From: Planctomycetota bacterium
Lineage (GTDB): Bacteria > Planctomycetota > Planctomycetia > Gemmatales > Gemmataceae
Direction: 5' to 3'
Length of the DNA stretch: 64,000 nucleotides
Assembly (NCBI GenBank): GCA_016872605.1
Contig: VGZI01000005.1
Location: 1 to 64,000, forward strand
Part shown: positions 4,904 to 41,455 of the stretch, piece after piece
How the letters are laid out: each line of letters begins with the position of its first letter
Numbering within the stretch: the first letter of the stretch is position 1
The notes under the pieces: model-generated
Told to the model about the DNA's origin: nothing
Databases searched by the model: none
Seen by the model: the letters and a program-made list of their open reading frames with translations, nothing else
Made by a program: the position numbers and the translations under genes

Positions 4904-6538
4904 CTAATCCAGCGCCGGCGGACCGCCGAGTTTTTCGAGCCGCGCACGGCGTTGTTGCCACTGGGCGGCGTCGAGGATGCGCGGGTTGGCGTGCTCGTCG
5001 GCTTCGATGCCGGTGACGACTTGGGCCCACAGCATGATGCGCTCTGGGTCATCACGAAGAGGGCGCGGGATTTTCCATAATCGGGCGTCTTGTCGGCGCT
5101 GCCGGTGAGGGCCAGCGTGGCGTCGGCGGAAAGGGCGACGCGTTTGACAGCGCCTTGGTGGTGGAAAGGTGGTCCGAGGGGTTTGCCGCTCGACGCCTCC
5201 CAGAATCGAGCCGTCATGTCGTCGCTGCCGGTGAGGGATCGTTTGGCCGTCGGCGCTCAGAGCGACCCCCTCGATGGCGTCTTGATGATGGAGCGGCGGT
5301 CCGATCGGCATCCCGGTCGAAGTGTCCCAAAGGCGAGCGATGTTGTCGAGGCTTCCCGTCACAGCGATCTTGCCGTCGGCGCTCAAGGCAACAGCGACGA
5401 CGATCGTCCGATGCGGGAGCGCGCGTGCCATCGATTTTCCGGCAGCGGCGTCCCAGATGCGAGCCGATTGGTCCCAGCTTCCGGTGAGTGCCGTTTTGCC
5501 GTCGGCGCTCAAGGCGACGGCACTGATGCGACTCTGATGGTGAAGCGGCGGACCGATGAGCCTGCCGGTCGCGGTGTCCCACAGTCGCGCCGTCTTGTCG
5601 ACGCTGCCGGTGATCGCGGTCTTGCCGCCGGCGCCGACGGCTACTGCGTCGACGCGGCCACGATGCTGTAAAGGCGGTCCAATCGGCTTTCCCGTCCGGG
5701 TGTCCCATGCACGTGCCGTTTTGTCGTCGCTGCCGGTGAGCGCTGTCTTGCCGTCGGCGCTAAGGGCCACGACGCGGACGATGTCCTGATGCTGTAGCGG
5801 CGGCCCGATCGGCTTGCCCGTTGCCGTATCCCAAGCTCGAGCCTCGTGGTGACTTGCCGTGAGAGCAACGCTGCCGTCGGCGCTTAATGCGACATCGCGG
5901 ACGACCTCCGGATGCTCGAGCGGAAGTCCAGTCTGCTGGCCGGTCGCCGTGTCCCATGTCCGCACGCTGGTCTCGAAGCTTCCGGTCAGCGCCGTTTTGC
6001 CGTCGGCGCTCAAAGCGACGGCGTTGACGAGATACGGATGCTGGACCGGCGAGCCGATGAGCATGCCAGTGGCGGTCCGCCAGACGCGAGCCGTACGATC
6101 GGCGCCGCCGGTAATTGCCGTCTTGCCGTCGGTGCTGAGTGCGACGGCTCGGACAATGTCGTCATGGCGAAGCGGCGAGCCGATGAGCTTGCCGGTCGCG
6201 GTGTCCCAGGCCTGGGCCGAGTTGCCGCTCGCCGTCAAGGCGGTTGTGCCGTCGGCGCTGACGGCCACGCACCAGACGCGATCGTCATGGCCGATAATCC
6301 TGCGCAGACGATTCTTGCTCATTTCGTTGCCCCAGGCGGCGAGGTGCCGACGCATCGAATCAGCCAACGCTGGTTTCTTGAGCCCGACCGCCTTGGGCAG
6401 GATTTGCGCCATGCCCACGAACCCCAATCCGGGCCTCTCCGCCAGCATCGCGTGATAGGCGTCGAAGCCGATCTGGACGGCCACGGTCTCTGCTTCATCG
6501 CGGCGCGCATCGGCCTCGTCGCGTAGTTTTTTTTTCAT
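4904..6538 (-). pseudogene. WD40-repeat part of a kinase-WD40 protein, frame-disrupted
   Basis: This stretch encodes roughly ten WD40 blades with the repeat ALSADGKTALTGS...ARxWDTATG, forming a beta-propeller. It belongs to the kinase gene directly upstream but is out of frame with it. The join is at an A9 run (6527-6535); eight A would fuse the two parts as DDEKKLRDEADARR. Two more single-base shifts lie inside: one extra C near 5240 and one missing base near 5085. Between them the WD40 reading (MTARFWEASSGKPLG) sits in another frame before returning to ARLWKIPRPL. An independent ATG exists at 6538, so separate translation is possible, but the C-terminal blades would still be scrambled. Either real decay or sequence errors explain this. 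Confidence 0.75.
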
Positions 6539-22553: not shown

Positions 22554-22630
22554 TGAAACGCAGAGTGCGCAGAGGCCGCGGAGAGTATGAGCCGAATCCT
22601 CTCCGCGGCCTCTGCGCACTCTGCGTTTCA
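22554..22630. repeat. Perfect 32-bp palindrome of the GCAGAG family (copy 2)
   Basis: Arms 22554-22585 and 22599-22630 are exact reverse complements over 32 bases, built of CGCAGAGTGCGCAGAG units, with a 13-base loop. The left half is nearly identical to 60654-60685. It lies two bases beyond the stop of the membrane protein gene at 22633 and probably terminates it. Confidence 0.85.
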
Positions 22631-22632
22631 AA

Positions 22633-23901
22633 CTACCCCTTCCAGAACATCGCCATGATGAAAACGAACACCAGATCGAGCGCCGTCATGATGAAGAGAT
22701 TCGCCCAAACCTGCAACGTGCGGCCTTCGATCATGAAATCCAATACGCCGGTGAATAGCGCAACCGCGAAGGTCGGCCTTTTCGTGCTCCGCTCCGGCAT
22801 GAAGTTTTCTTCGGCCTTCCGCTTGGCTTCTTCCTTGGCAATCCGTTCTTTCTCGGCGCGCTTCTCGTAGTAGTCGGCAACGTCCTGAGGCCGATCGGCC
22901 TCCGGAATCTCCTCGTAGTCACGTGTCGCGTGCTCGGTAGTGTCGTACGGCTTTTTTTCGAGCGACCACTCATCCTCTTCCTCTTCGGCGACCAGCGTCG
23001 GCGACTTCAGCGGCGCGGGGGGCATCGGCACGCTTCCCGGCGCCGTCGGCGTCTCGTCAAAACTCATCGCCTCCGGATCACTCACCAGCCCATACGGCTT
23101 CGTGTCCGCCCACTCGTCTTCAGGTTCGCTCACCGGCGCGGGCGGTTCATCGTGCGGTAACTCGTCCTCGTTCGCCCCCGCGTCGTATTGAGCCGGTTGC
23201 GGAGCCGGCGGTTCTTCCGAATCAACATAAATCGGCGTGCCTCGCGGGAAATCAGGCTCCGGGTCCGACGCTCCTTCACCGACGCCGTTCGGCACGAAGT
23301 GCAGCGACAGCCAGGCGAATCGGCCCCACTGCCGAGCGTAGAACAAAATCGCCGTCGGAATCGCAAACGCCGCCGGCACGCCCCACCAGTAACTTTGGGT
23401 CAGCATGGCGTACAGCAGCGCCACGGGAATGCCCACCACGACGGACGTAACAATCTGCACGTAGACGAATGCAACGAAGTGTGTCAGCATCCGCCCAAGA
23501 ATTGTCGGATGCATGTAGAAAAACCAGTTTCGCGTGTAAAGCGACGAGATCACGCCGAGCGGAAACGCGAACCACAACAAGATGCCCCAGGAAATCAGAA
23601 ACGTCTGCATGCTATGGAAGAGCGCCGGAAAGATGATCAAGGCCCCCGGCACGATCCAAACGAACAGGATCCACAAGCACAAGAGCGGTTTCCACCACCA
23701 GGTGGCAATCGTTTCGTCGTTGGGAAAATGAACTTCATCGTGGCCGGAGGTCGAGTGAATGATCGTGACGAGAAAATAATGGGCGGCGAAGATGGCGAAG
23801 ATCATCGTGCAGATGGTGAAGCCGACGAGTCCGCACAGGAAGATGAGGGCGGACCCGATGCCCCCGATGAGGGCTTGTCCCCCGATTTGTGCGAGGAGCA
23901 T
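22633..23901 (-). CDS. Uncharacterised multi-pass membrane protein, last gene of the thiC unit
   Basis: The 422-residue protein has about five N-terminal helices (IGSALIFLCGLVGFTICTM; LCLWILFVWIVPGALIIF; LISWGILLWFAFPLGVI; FVYVQIVTSVVVGIPVALL; VPAAFAIPTAILFYA). An acidic, proline-rich cytoplasmic stretch carries two DEWxxxKPY motifs, and a last helix lies near the C-terminus (NLFIMTALDLVFVFIMAMF). The ATG at 23901 follows GAGGTG. It starts 74 bases after thiC in the same direction. No known family was recognised. Confidence 0.75.
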   Translation of the reverse strand: MLLAQIGGQALIGGIGSALIFLCGLVGFTICTMIFAIFAAHYFLVTIIHSTSGHDEVHFPNDETIATWWWKPLLCLWILFVWIVPGALIIFPALFHSMQTFLISWGILLWFAFPLGVISSLYTRNWFFYMHPTILGRMLTHFVAFVYVQIVTSVVVGIPVALLYAMLTQSYWWGVPAAFAIPTAILFYARQWGRFAWLSLHFVPNGVGEGASDPEPDFPRGTPIYVDSEEPPAPQPAQYDAGANEDELPHDEPPAPVSEPEDEWADTKPYGLVSDPEAMSFDETPTAPGSVPMPPAPLKSPTLVAEEEEDEWSLEKKPYDTTEHATRDYEEIPEADRPQDVADYYEKRAEKERIAKEEAKRKAEENFMPERSTKRPTFAVALFTGVLDFMIEGRTLQVWANLFIMTALDLVFVFIMAMFWKG

Positions 23902-23975: not shown

Positions 23976-25361
<1,386 letters not shown>

Positions 25362-25832
25362 TCAAATGGTCTTAGGGTCTTTTAGCCAGCTACGGACGAA
25401 CGTAAACAACACATTCCATTCGACAATCCACCATAGGATGACGAATATCGTCGTGGGGATGAAGAGGTAGATCACGGTGATATTGAGGCCTTGGAAAAAA
25501 TCCTCCAAGGAGAAACAATAAATCATGATGCCCGATGCGAGGCCGAGAAAGCCGATGAGCAAAACAAAATGCACGATCCCCGCGGGCAGGTCGACGAGCA
25601 TCTCGATGACGAAGTAGTCGAGCGCGGTGATGCCGACGGCGGCAAGAGCGAAGAAGAGCGACGCCCGCCAGCCGCGCGGCCAGAGCTCATCTTCGAACTC
25701 CTCCCGAATCTCTTTGACGCCGTGCCAAATCTTATATGCATACACCGCCCAGGGAGCCGTCAGCGGAAACAGAACGGAGACGGACAGCGTCCATGCCAGC
25801 ATGTTCCACGAGAAGATGTATAGCGATTGCAT
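25362..25832 (-). CDS. Unknown 4-TM membrane protein, first gene behind the TPP riboswitch
   Basis: The 156-residue protein has four hydrophobic stretches (MLAWTLSVSVLFPLTAPWAV; SLFFALAAVGITALDYFVI; FVLLIGFLGLASGIMIY; VIYLFIPTTIFVILWWIV). A charged loop (KEIREEFEDELWPRGWR) lies between the first two. It is the first gene after the riboswitch and 75 bases upstream of thiC. It is not a recognised ThiT, PnuT, ThiBPQ or CytX-type transporter. Position alone suggests a role in uptake or handling of thiamine or its precursors. The exact start is uncertain; GGAG lies about 12 bases before ATG 25832. Confidence 0.7.
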   Translation of the reverse strand: MQSLYIFSWNMLAWTLSVSVLFPLTAPWAVYAYKIWHGVKEIREEFEDELWPRGWRASLFFALAAVGITALDYFVIEMLVDLPAGIVHFVLLIGFLGLASGIMIYCFSLEDFFQGLNITVIYLFIPTTIFVILWWIVEWNVLFTFVRSWLKDPKTI

Positions 25833-25914
25833 GACGCCCGGAATCTCCAGGAATCGCGGTGCTCAACTTGAGACTCGATGGGAATGACCGAGACGGTGCG
25901 CGACCGAAAGAAAG

Positions 25915-25995
25915 ATCGCTTTCCCACGCCGGCATGATCCGGATCAGGTCCCAGGGTTTGCTCTCAGTTCGCGGTAAGCGGACACCCCTAGCGAT
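25915..25995 (-). promoter_or_regulatory. TPP riboswitch (THI element)
   Basis: On the minus strand the conserved core is complete: GGGGTG, CTGAGA, ACCCTGGGACCTGATCCGG, ATCATGCCGGCGTGGGAA. Closing P1 arms ATCGCT (25995-25990) and AGCGAT (25920-25915) pair perfectly. About 80 bases separate it from the first gene, enough for an expression platform. Binding of thiamine pyrophosphate should lower expression of the downstream unit including thiC. Confidence 0.93.
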
Positions 25996-26083
25996 TACGA
26001 TTAGTTTATGCGAGCACGCAGCGCAAGCAAGTGCGGACAGCGGCCGCTTGCGTTGGGTCACACCATCTGGTACAGTCGTTGTC

Positions 26084-27016
26084 ATGGCCAAGCGGCCCCA
26101 ACTCCGTGATGATTTCGATAGCCCCTGGAAGGAGGCGCTGCAACTCTATCTGCCGGCCTTCCTTTCGCTGTGCTGGCCTAACGTCCATACGGAGATCGAT
26201 TGGTCGCGCGGGTACCAGTCCTTGGACAAGGAATTTCAGCGAATTCTCCGCCGCGCCAAGCTGGGCAAACGCATCGCCGACAAGCTGTTCAAGGTATGGT
26301 TGAAGGACGGCATCGAATGCTGGGTGCTCGTGCACGTCGAAGTCCAGGGCTACGTTGACCAAGAATTCCCAAAGCGCATGTTCGAGTATCATGTCGCGAT
26401 CCGGCAGATGTATAATCAAGACGTGGTGAGTTTGGCGATCCTTTGCGACGATCAACCGGATTGGAGACCCCATCAATTCGCCTTCGCTCGCTGGGGTTGC
26501 AGCATCGACTTTAGGTTCCCGATCGTCAAGCTTCTGGACTTCGCGCGTCGGAAGGCCGAGCTTGAAGCGAGCGACAATCCGATTGCCGCCGTCGTCGTGG
26601 CCCACTTGGAAACCTTGGAGACGCGCCACGACCTGGCGGAGCGAAAGGACCGAAAGCTCCAGTTGGCCAAAGCGCTCCTTCAGCGAAACTGGTCGAAGGA
26701 CGACGTTCGCGAAGTCTTGCGGCTCATCGATTGGCTCATGACGTTGCCCGATGATCTTCACGACCAGTTCTTGACAGAGATTCATGAATTTGAAAAGGAG
26801 GCAGCCGTGCCGTTTGTCCCGAGCTATGAACGCGCCGCCCTGAAGAAAGGGCTTCTCGAGGGAATCGATATTTTACTGGACCTGAGGTTCGGAGCAAAAG
26901 GCCGAAAGCTCATGCCAGTGGTGAAGACAATTGAAGACCCCGATGAGCTACGGAAGCTCGCTCGCTTCCTGAAAAAAGCCCAGACTCTGGACGAAGTGCG
27001 CGCGTACCTGAAATGA
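26084..27016 (+). CDS. Rpn/YhgA-like PD-(D/E)XK nuclease-family protein
   Basis: The 310-residue protein resembles the Rpn (recombination-promoting nuclease, transposase_31/DUF4351-associated) family. WVLVHVEVQGYVDQEFPKRMFEYHVAIRQMY holds the ExQ-type catalytic core with the upstream acidic DxSRGYQSLDKEFQRI. The C-terminal region is helical and charged. Start 26084 lies at the beginning of homology; no Shine-Dalgarno is clear. Such genes are common, often mobile, and associated with genome rearrangement. The next gene starts 10 bases downstream. Confidence 0.7.
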   Translation: MAKRPQLRDDFDSPWKEALQLYLPAFLSLCWPNVHTEIDWSRGYQSLDKEFQRILRRAKLGKRIADKLFKVWLKDGIECWVLVHVEVQGYVDQEFPKRMFEYHVAIRQMYNQDVVSLAILCDDQPDWRPHQFAFARWGCSIDFRFPIVKLLDFARRKAELEASDNPIAAVVVAHLETLETRHDLAERKDRKLQLAKALLQRNWSKDDVREVLRLIDWLMTLPDDLHDQFLTEIHEFEKEAAVPFVPSYERAALKKGLLEGIDILLDLRFGAKGRKLMPVVKTIEDPDELRKLARFLKKAQTLDEVRAYLK

Positions 27017-27026
27017 GGGCCATCCG

Positions 27027-29474
27027 ATGGCGCGATTGGCTGCCTTGCTCCTTGTCGTGATCGGCGCCGGCGTTGCGTCGGCCCAGGCACGTCCCGAACC
27101 GTTGGTGCATGACGTCAAAGCCCGAATCGCCAAAGGCGTCGCGTATCTCGTCGCGCAGCAGAAACGCGACGGGAGCTGGGAGAACACCGTCGATGAGGAC
27201 AAATCCGATTACTACGGCGGCTCGACGGCTCTTTGCGTGCTGGCCCTTCTCAATTGCGACGGCGTGCTCGACGATCCGATACGCGACAAGGAACGCCAAG
27301 ACGCGATCGTCGCGGGATTGAAGAATCTACGCAATGTTCAATCGCCAAAAGTCTACGTGCGAGCGCTGCAAACGATGGCCTTTGCCGAGGCACGCAGCGA
27401 TTTCAAGCTCATCAAGGAAAACGTTGATTGGATCATCCAAGCCCGAGTCTTCAGGGACGGCAAATTCATCGGCTGGGACTATCACACGGCACGCGCAGGC
27501 TATCATGTCACCGACGCCTCCAACTCCCAGTATGCCATGCTCGCCCTGTGGCATGCCCGCCAAGCAGGCATCGAAATACCGCGCGACGTTTGGCAGAGCA
27601 TCCACGACCTCTATCGGCGGACACAGGACCCGAAGCAGGGATTCTGGATCTACTCCCCCTACTACACTGACAACGAGCTCAAACGCCCGTCCGTCACCAT
27701 GACCATCGCCGGGCTGTGCGGTCTCTACATCGCCGGCGCCGAACTCAACGGCGGCCGCGAACAATGGCAAAAGAACGGACGTTTCGCGAACTGCGGCGAT
27801 TATCCGGACAGCGAGAATACCGCGAAAGCACTCGCCTGGATCAGCAAGAACTTCAGCTTCGATCTGCCGAGCCGAACCTATTACCACCTCTACGGCTTGG
27901 AGCGGGCGGGCCGGCTTTCGGGGATGCGATTCTTCGGCGAGCACGACTGGTATCGCGAAGGCTGCGAATACCTCGTGAAGCGCCAGGAGCCGAACGGTGC
28001 ATGGAAAACGCATGGCGGCTGGGATCGCTGGCCGCACGTCAACACCAGCTTCGCCCTGCTGTTCCTCTCCAAGGGCCGCACGCCGGTGGTCATAAGCAAG
28101 CTCGTGCACGGCAATTGGCCGCGCCGCGAGGACGATCAAGATTGGAACAACGATCGCAATGACCTGCGCCATCTCACCGAATTTATCTCGCGCGAAGGCA
28201 TTTTCGACCCGAAGCCCAGGGGTGAACGCAGCGAGCCCCTGGGATTGAAGAAACCGGTCGGCTGGCAAACCTACGACATCATGCGTGCTCTCTACGCCCG
28301 TAATGGCGACCGCTACACGAAGGAAGAGGAAACCGCCACCGTCGCCGACATGAGGCAATCGCCGATCCTCTACATCACCGGGCACAACGCGCCGCTCAAT
28401 CGTATTCAAGGAACCGAGACGGCGCTGATCCAACGCTACGTCGAGAACGGCGGGTTCGTTTTCGCCGAGGCGTGCTGCGGCGATCCCGATTTCGACAAGG
28501 GCTTCAAGCAGTGGGTCGCCAACACCTGGCCCGATCACAAGCTCGAGTATCTCAAGCCGGAGCATCCGGTCTGGAGTTCGGAATACGTGATCCCCCCGGG
28601 GGATCCGTACAAATTGATGGGCCTGGACGTCGGCTGCCGAACCGTATTGATCTACAGCCCGCAGGATGCGTCGTGCCACTGGGAGTCGAACAACTTCAAG
28701 GATGGCCGTGGACAACTCGCGTTTCGGCTTGGCGCGAACGTGGTGGCGCTGGCGACGGGAAAGTCGCCTCCGCTGCCGCGGTTGACGCCGTTCGATGTGG
28801 CGAGTGATCGTCCGCCGATGAAGGACCCGGAAACGAACGGGTTTTTCCAGGTAGGCCAAATCCGCCATTCGGACAACTGGCAGCCGGCGCCCAAGGCGAT
28901 GATCCACTTGATGGAGCACGTCCACAAGGCGACCGGCCTCGATGTGCTGGTGCGGCCGCGCGAGATTCGCCTGACCGAACCGATCAGTGTGCGCGAGTCG
29001 AAGTTTCTCTACATGCACGGTCGCGGCCCGTTTCGCGTCGACGCCAAGAATCTAGACGCGTTGCGATTCACGCTGGAGAATGGCGGTCTGCTCTTCGCCG
29101 ATGCGTGCTGCGGCGATCCGGAGTTCGATCAGGCATTTCGCCAGTTCGTCGAGCTGCTGTTTCCCAAAGAAAAGCTGACTCGTCTTGCGACTGACGAGAA
29201 GGACCGCGACCGGCTCTTCAGCGCCGCCCTGAATCGTGGCGAAACGATCACGGCGGCCAACATCAAGTGCCGGACGACAAGGAATGCCGCGCCGGTCGCC
29301 ATGGAACCGTTCCTGGAAGGGATCAAGATCGATGGCCGATGGGTCGTACTCTACAGCAAGTACGACATCGGCTGCGCCCTGGAAGGCGGTGCGTCGGCCG
29401 TGTGCGTCGGCTACGACCGCGACAGCGCTCTGCGTATCGCCACTGCGGCGGTGCGTTACAACACACGGCCGTAG
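27027..29474 (+). CDS. Secreted prenyltransferase/squalene-oxidase-repeat protein with two DUF4159 domains
   Basis: The 815-residue protein has a signal peptide (LAALLLVVIGAGVASAQA). An alpha/alpha toroid-like repeat region (KGVAYLVAQQKRDGSWEN ... STALCVLALL ... PNGAWKTHGGWDRWPHVNTSFALLFL) reaches about residue 380. Two DUF4159 domains follow, around 445-600 (GGFVFAEACCGDPDFDKGF) and 645-815 (GGLLFADACCGDPEFDQAF). A palindrome inserted in frame encodes PRGERSEPLG at residues 397-406, between the two parts. It starts 10 bases after the nuclease-like gene, with GAGGG in that gene's end. Function is unknown. Confidence 0.85.
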   Translation: MARLAALLLVVIGAGVASAQARPEPLVHDVKARIAKGVAYLVAQQKRDGSWENTVDEDKSDYYGGSTALCVLALLNCDGVLDDPIRDKERQDAIVAGLKNLRNVQSPKVYVRALQTMAFAEARSDFKLIKENVDWIIQARVFRDGKFIGWDYHTARAGYHVTDASNSQYAMLALWHARQAGIEIPRDVWQSIHDLYRRTQDPKQGFWIYSPYYTDNELKRPSVTMTIAGLCGLYIAGAELNGGREQWQKNGRFANCGDYPDSENTAKALAWISKNFSFDLPSRTYYHLYGLERAGRLSGMRFFGEHDWYREGCEYLVKRQEPNGAWKTHGGWDRWPHVNTSFALLFLSKGRTPVVISKLVHGNWPRREDDQDWNNDRNDLRHLTEFISREGIFDPKPRGERSEPLGLKKPVGWQTYDIMRALYARNGDRYTKEEETATVADMRQSPILYITGHNAPLNRIQGTETALIQRYVENGGFVFAEACCGDPDFDKGFKQWVANTWPDHKLEYLKPEHPVWSSEYVIPPGDPYKLMGLDVGCRTVLIYSPQDASCHWESNNFKDGRGQLAFRLGANVVALATGKSPPLPRLTPFDVASDRPPMKDPETNGFFQVGQIRHSDNWQPAPKAMIHLMEHVHKATGLDVLVRPREIRLTEPISVRESKFLYMHGRGPFRVDAKNLDALRFTLENGGLLFADACCGDPEFDQAFRQFVELLFPKEKLTRLATDEKDRDRLFSAALNRGETITAANIKCRTTRNAAPVAMEPFLEGIKIDGRWVVLYSKYDIGCALEGGASAVCVGYDRDSALRIATAAVRYNTRP
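28215..28243. repeat. In-frame palindrome inside the prenyltransferase/DUF4159 gene
   Basis: CCCAGGGG and CCCCTGGG arms close a 29-base palindrome that is read as PRGERSEPLG without breaking the frame. It lies at the linker between the toroid-like domain and the first DUF4159 domain. Confidence 0.65.
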
Positions 29475-41405: not shown

Positions 41406-41455
41406 CCTCTTCGTTTAGCGTTCGCACGGCGCCACGCGGGCGCTAAACGAAGAGG
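41406..41455. repeat. CGTTTAGCG/CGCTAAACG palindrome, copy upstream of trpC
   Basis: A 50-base palindrome with ends CCTCTTCGTTTAGCG and CGCTAAACGAAGAGG and a GCGCC centre. Near-identical elements lie at 51896-51942, 53576-53620 and 55709-55757. It sits in the divergent gap between trpC and the CPBP gene. Confidence 0.85.

What the first reader, a model, noticed from the sequence alone, without database searches (positions are those of the whole stretch)
25362..25995. A TPP riboswitch controls an unknown four-helix membrane protein ahead of thiC
The riboswitch is complete and the first gene behind it is a 156-residue membrane protein that I cannot assign to a known thiamine or HMP transporter family. 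thiC follows 75 bases later. Genes placed this way are usually transporters or enzymes of the thiamine pathway.
Basis: partly seen in the sequence, partly recalled or inferred. Interest (0 to 1): 0.7.

Follow-up and report, generated by a model that had tools for sequence, protein, structure and literature searches.

The report
Vitamin-B1-switched orphan membrane protein before thiC
In some bacteria of the family Gemmataceae, the RNA switch that normally turns off the vitamin B1 gene thiC has a small, never-described membrane protein gene placed right behind it, and the gene stays there in every clear relative found, so it probably helps with vitamin B1, though how is not known.

Summary
A complete TPP riboswitch (Rfam 61.7 bits), a 156-residue ORF and thiC lie in that order on the minus strand, with 75 nt between ORF and thiC. 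The ORF is a real gene. I found orthologs in 10 Gemmataceae genomes (six genera), and all ten sit between a TPP riboswitch and thiC. In the other 62 riboswitch loci of the family no homolog intervenes, and in 60 of them thiC follows directly. In three orthologs the start codon lies within about 8 nt of the aptamer's last helix, so this gene is the riboswitch's direct target. Samples of the class (397 genomes) and phylum (392) showed none outside this family. No Pfam, NCBIfam, PHROG, PDB-sequence or confident fold match exists.

These genomes have the de novo route (ThiC, ThiG, ThiD2-ThiE, ThiL). But classical ThiD (HMP kinase) and thiamine pyrophosphokinase were not found in any carrier, so imported HMP or thiamine has no recognised way in. 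One remote relative, in a complete genome, is unlinked to thiamine genes. Function is inferred only: B1-vitamer uptake is my first guess, a ThiC-associated membrane factor second, a passenger third.

The parts
25904..25999 (-). TPP riboswitch aptamer (THI element), complete
   Evidence: Rfam RF00059, 61.7 bits, model 1-105 of 105
25833..25903 (-). 71-nt leader between aptamer and ORF, with a possible Shine-Dalgarno GGAG in CCTGGAGATTCCGGG before the ATG; mechanism of switching not resolved
   Evidence: sequence; whole-leader folding is not better than shuffles, z 0.35, so no structure is claimed
25362..25832 (-). orf156: 156-residue integral membrane protein with four hydrophobic segments, no known family
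25287..25361 (-). 75-nt spacer with thiC's own ribosome site (AAGGAAAGG, about 25296-25304)
   Evidence: no second riboswitch in the window
23976..25286 (-). thiC (phosphomethylpyrimidine synthase), 436 aa, second cistron
   Evidence: PF01964 E 1.4e-191
22633..23901 (-). possible third cistron: about 422-residue membrane protein after thiC, no family; membership of the unit not shown
   Evidence: homologs directly after thiC in two relatives (L054, L056), not in a third (L055); no Pfam match

Best explanation
A TPP riboswitch controls a two-gene unit, orf156-thiC. SHOWN by sequence: orf156 is the first gene behind the aptamer in all ten clear orthologs, and in three lineages its start codon lies at or within about 8 nt of the last aptamer helix, so the riboswitch acts first on orf156. 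INFERRED from established knowledge of TPP riboswitches: when TPP is plentiful the mRNA is shut off; when it is scarce the membrane protein and ThiC are made together. INFERRED, weakly: the four-helix protein, probably as an oligomer, lets in a vitamin B1 vitamer or related solute when TPP is low. Thiamine monophosphate or diphosphate would fit the enzymes found best, because ThiL is present but HMP kinase and thiamine pyrophosphokinase were not found.
For: Linkage: 10 of 10 clear orthologs between TPP riboswitch and thiC. Direct control: the start codon overlaps or abuts helix P1 in L007 and L022 and lies eight bases after it in L006. Real protein under constraint: pN/pS 0.42-0.82, four hydrophobic segments kept. 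Low TPP turns on uptake and synthesis genes in known thiamine regulons (general knowledge; PMC12632268 abstract). The well-known alternative PnuC/PnuT-type transporter is absent from all 10 carriers and clearly present in 2 of 12 non-carriers (too few to count as a trend). ThiL is present in all carriers, so TMP or TPP could be used.
Against: No transporter family, PDB sequence or fold match. HMP import would be useless without ThiD, which was clearly found in only one of 22 genomes, a non-carrier at the thiC locus; the family's ThiD2 does not act on free HMP (PMC12345177). Thiamine import would need a kinase; TPK in 0 of 22. Patchy distribution, at least four changes on the ThiC tree. The protein diverges several times faster than ThiC. 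A remote relative in G014 has no riboswitch near it and no thiamine gene that I recognised.
Confidence: 0.35

Rival explanations
1. orf156 is a membrane partner of ThiC or of another step of de novo synthesis (docking, electron or iron-sulfur supply, by-product handling), not a permease.
For: The gene beside it is always thiC, the committed de novo enzyme; the genomes look dedicated to de novo synthesis, with recognised salvage kinases missing. In two relatives and the window a second membrane protein follows thiC.
Against: Most Gemmataceae run the same riboswitch-thiC arrangement and the same pathway without orf156, so ThiC does not need it. The ORF varies far more than ThiC, unlike a tight partner.
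Confidence: 0.25
2. Passenger: a membrane gene with another job landed between the riboswitch and thiC in an ancestor and now shares its control without a role in thiamine.
For: Patchy presence, fast divergence, an unlinked remote relative in the complete genome G014, no clear pathway gap that it would fill.
Against: Ten of ten clear orthologs across six genera, down to 17% identity, kept exactly this position, and in three lineages the start codon is fitted against the aptamer.
Confidence: 0.25
3. It exports a thiamine intermediate or an antivitamin.
For: Genes for thiamin antivitamins occur with ThiD2 and an ABC transporter in Microcystis clusters (PMC12345177); these genomes use ThiD2 too.
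Against: A gene switched off by TPP is expected to be on when TPP is scarce, the wrong moment to export; no antivitamin genes were looked for.
Confidence: 0.07

Closest known systems
TPP riboswitch-thiC units (e.g. E. coli thiC, Neisseria meningitidis thiC; most Gemmataceae)
   Same: Same aptamer family and same enzyme gene under it.
   Different: An extra membrane-protein gene lies between aptamer and thiC and takes over the riboswitch-proximal start site.
Riboswitch-linked thiamine or HMP transporters (ThiT, PnuT, ThiW, CytX)
   Same: A TPP-controlled membrane protein next to thiamine genes.
   Different: 156 aa with four hydrophobic segments; no hit to any of their Pfam models, no HMMER match to PDB sequences. 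CytX is found in organisms lacking ThiC (PMC5874261), whereas orf156 is only with thiC.
Remote relative in G014 (L138, ORF ending at 5810, minus strand; about 135 aa)
   Same: Aligns over 124 profile positions at 42.8 bits, best of 2000 shuffles 8.6; keeps the G, R, acidic-x-x-G and P motif positions.
   Different: No riboswitch in its 13-kb surroundings; no thiamine gene that I recognised among its neighbours.

Membership tests
TPP riboswitch (RF00059) | Covariance-model match above the curated threshold over the whole aptamer | tested here: met
   61.7 bits against 54.3, positions 1-105
TPP riboswitch (RF00059) | TPP binding and TPP-dependent repression | not testable with these tools
   needs in-line probing or a reporter assay
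ThiC | Full-length match to the ThiC radical-SAM family | tested here: met
   PF01964 E 1.4e-191, positions 1-419 of 420
Known thiamine/HMP transporter families (ThiT PF09515, ThiW PF09512, PnuC/PnuT PF04973, CytX PF02133) | Sequence match of orf156 to the family model | tested here: not met
   Pfam scan of the window protein (E up to 10) and of nine family members (E up to 1): none of these families listed. This does not exclude that it works as a transporter.
Known thiamine/HMP transporter families | Shared fold | tested here: inconclusive
   Model pLDDT 77 from five sequences; Foldseek PDB no match at E <= 0.001; VIA-align best Z 6.7, within what unrelated helical proteins give
Known thiamine/HMP transporter families | Transport of thiamine or a precursor | not testable with these tools
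   needs uptake assay
Thiamine-regulon member (functional linkage) | Conserved co-location with thiamine genes or TPP riboswitch across genera | tested here: met
   10 of 10 clear orthologs, six genera; one remote relative unlinked

The most novel reading that the evidence does not exclude
orf156 founds a new, Gemmataceae-restricted family of small four-helix membrane proteins that take up phosphorylated thiamine (TMP or TPP) in bacteria lacking the usual salvage kinases.
Probability: 0.12. Interest if true: 0.75.

Novelty: new variant of a known kind. Interest (0 to 1): 0.45.

Why it matters
Riboswitches are among the best guides to gene function in unstudied bacteria. Here one points firmly at a membrane protein family with no name, in a group whose recognised B1 salvage enzymes are missing. 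If it carries a B1 vitamer it would be a new, very small transporter type; if it serves ThiC it would be an unknown part of a well-studied pathway. Either way the gene is a defined, testable candidate.

Tried and rejected
Sequence families: Pfam, NCBIfam, PHROGs, PDB sequences gave nothing usable. Fold search: no match at E <= 0.001; VIA-align rows are GPCR and other helical proteins with Z up to 6.7, not interpreted. Leader folding: not better than shuffles, so no expression-platform model is offered. Three weak hits inside ORFs of 551-560 aa at E 0.002-0.007 (L010-L012) vanished with the profile and were dropped. Kinship of orf156 with the membrane protein after thiC: hhalign probability 0.1%, rejected. 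Insertion-like long gaps in genus g19: these are a longer ThiC with an N-terminal extension, not another gene. One ORF-less 378-nt gap in G012 was not pursued. Alignment A1 could not be used for the named-genome scan; A2 gave four loci, which have the same matches as four of the genomes already found.

Full report
What is there. On the minus strand a complete TPP riboswitch (25999-25904, 61.7 bits) is followed after 71 nt by a 156-codon ORF (25832-25362), then 75 nt later by thiC (25286-23976, PF01964 E 1.4e-191). It is the only TPP riboswitch match in the genome.

Is the ORF a gene? Yes. Relatives in eight further Gemmataceae genomes at 28-49% identity keep start, length and four hydrophobic segments, with the second weaker in two of them by simple hydropathy. 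The tenth member, in G484, is at 17% identity to the window but found by profile at E 4.8e-7. pN/pS is 0.42-0.82 at near-saturated pS: constrained, but evolving much faster than ThiC (pN 0.27-0.35 against 0.02-0.06 within the genus).

Distribution. In 95 genomes of the family, 10 carry it. Samples of the class (397 genomes, 11 matches, all in this family) and phylum (392 genomes, only the window's own) add no other family. The named-genome scan returned four metagenome-assembled genomes; two are labelled Gemmataceae bacterium, isolates Baikal-deep, and one comes from groundwater.

Linkage. Every one of the ten clear orthologs lies between a TPP riboswitch and thiC. The other 62 riboswitch matches of the family were all examined: 55 have thiC within 158 nt of the aptamer, five (genus g19) have a longer ThiC starting there, one has a 378-nt gap without an ORF, one could not be resolved at a contig end. 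None holds a homolog. So the clear orthologs sit in exactly one kind of place.

Direct control. In G010 the ATG overlaps the last base of helix P1; in G484 it begins one base after P1; in G009 a GTG start lies eight bases after it. The aptamer is thus fitted to this gene's start, which a chance neighbour would not need. How the window's own 71-nt leader switches is unresolved.

History. On the ThiC tree carriers are clustered but need at least four changes: most carriers share one part of the tree with four non-carriers, G026 and G484 stand apart. Old presence with several losses, or repeated gain, both fit.

Pathway. In 10 carriers plus 12 non-carriers: ThiE in 22 of 22, in the two read out fused to ThiD2 behind a Clp_N-like domain; ThiG in 20, including all carriers; ThiL in all, 20 over the cut-off. 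A clear classical ThiD was found only in G014, thiamine pyrophosphokinase in none, clear PnuC/PnuT only in G467 and G014, neither of which has the gene at thiC. ThiD2 phosphorylates HMP phosphate but not HMP (PMC12345177). Most are draft genomes, but single-contig non-carriers agree on the missing pyrophosphokinase. ThiK-type kinases, ThiM, TenA and other transporters were not searched.

Reading. A gene on when TPP is low, always beside thiC, should help B1 supply. Uptake is the usual role for such membrane proteins, but free HMP and probably free thiamine have no recognised use in these cells; TMP or TPP would. A ThiC partner is possible, although most of the family does without it. A passenger is possible: G014, a complete genome, has a remote relative (42.8 bits against at most 8.6 for 2000 shuffles) with no riboswitch in 13 kb and no thiamine gene that I recognised around it.

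Verdict. The function remains inferred.

Noticed in passing
window 22633-23901 (-): Membrane protein of about 422 residues after thiC, with hydrophobic ends and a proline/glutamate-rich middle; homologs directly follow thiC in L054 and L056 but not L055. No family.
   Followed up: partly
L097 601-2103; L103 586-2109: ThiE is fused to ThiD2 and carries a Clp_N-like domain at its N-terminus (PF02861, PF17792, PF02581). The Clp_N part is unexplained.
   Followed up: partly
L043-L046, L092 (genus g19): A different, longer ThiC (about 48% identical) with an N-terminal extension, directly behind a TPP riboswitch.
   Followed up: partly
L002 1974-2009, L003 1972-2006; window 41413-41448: Palindromes with arms GTTTAGC...GCTAAAC lie between the ORF and thiC in relatives and elsewhere in the window; other long palindromes fill the same spacer in L004, L005, L007, L008. 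They look like dispersed repeats.
   Followed up: partly
window 26085-27016 (+): YhgA-like putative transposase gene (PF04754, 20.0 bits, just under cut-off) divergent from the riboswitch, between it and a DUF4159 gene (27027-29474).
   Followed up: no
window 22554-22630: 35-nt inverted repeat, 97% complementary with a 7-nt loop, just beyond the end of the gene after thiC.
   Followed up: no
L024 1600-1978 (G012): 378 nt without an ORF between riboswitch and thiC; perhaps a decayed gene.
   Followed up: no
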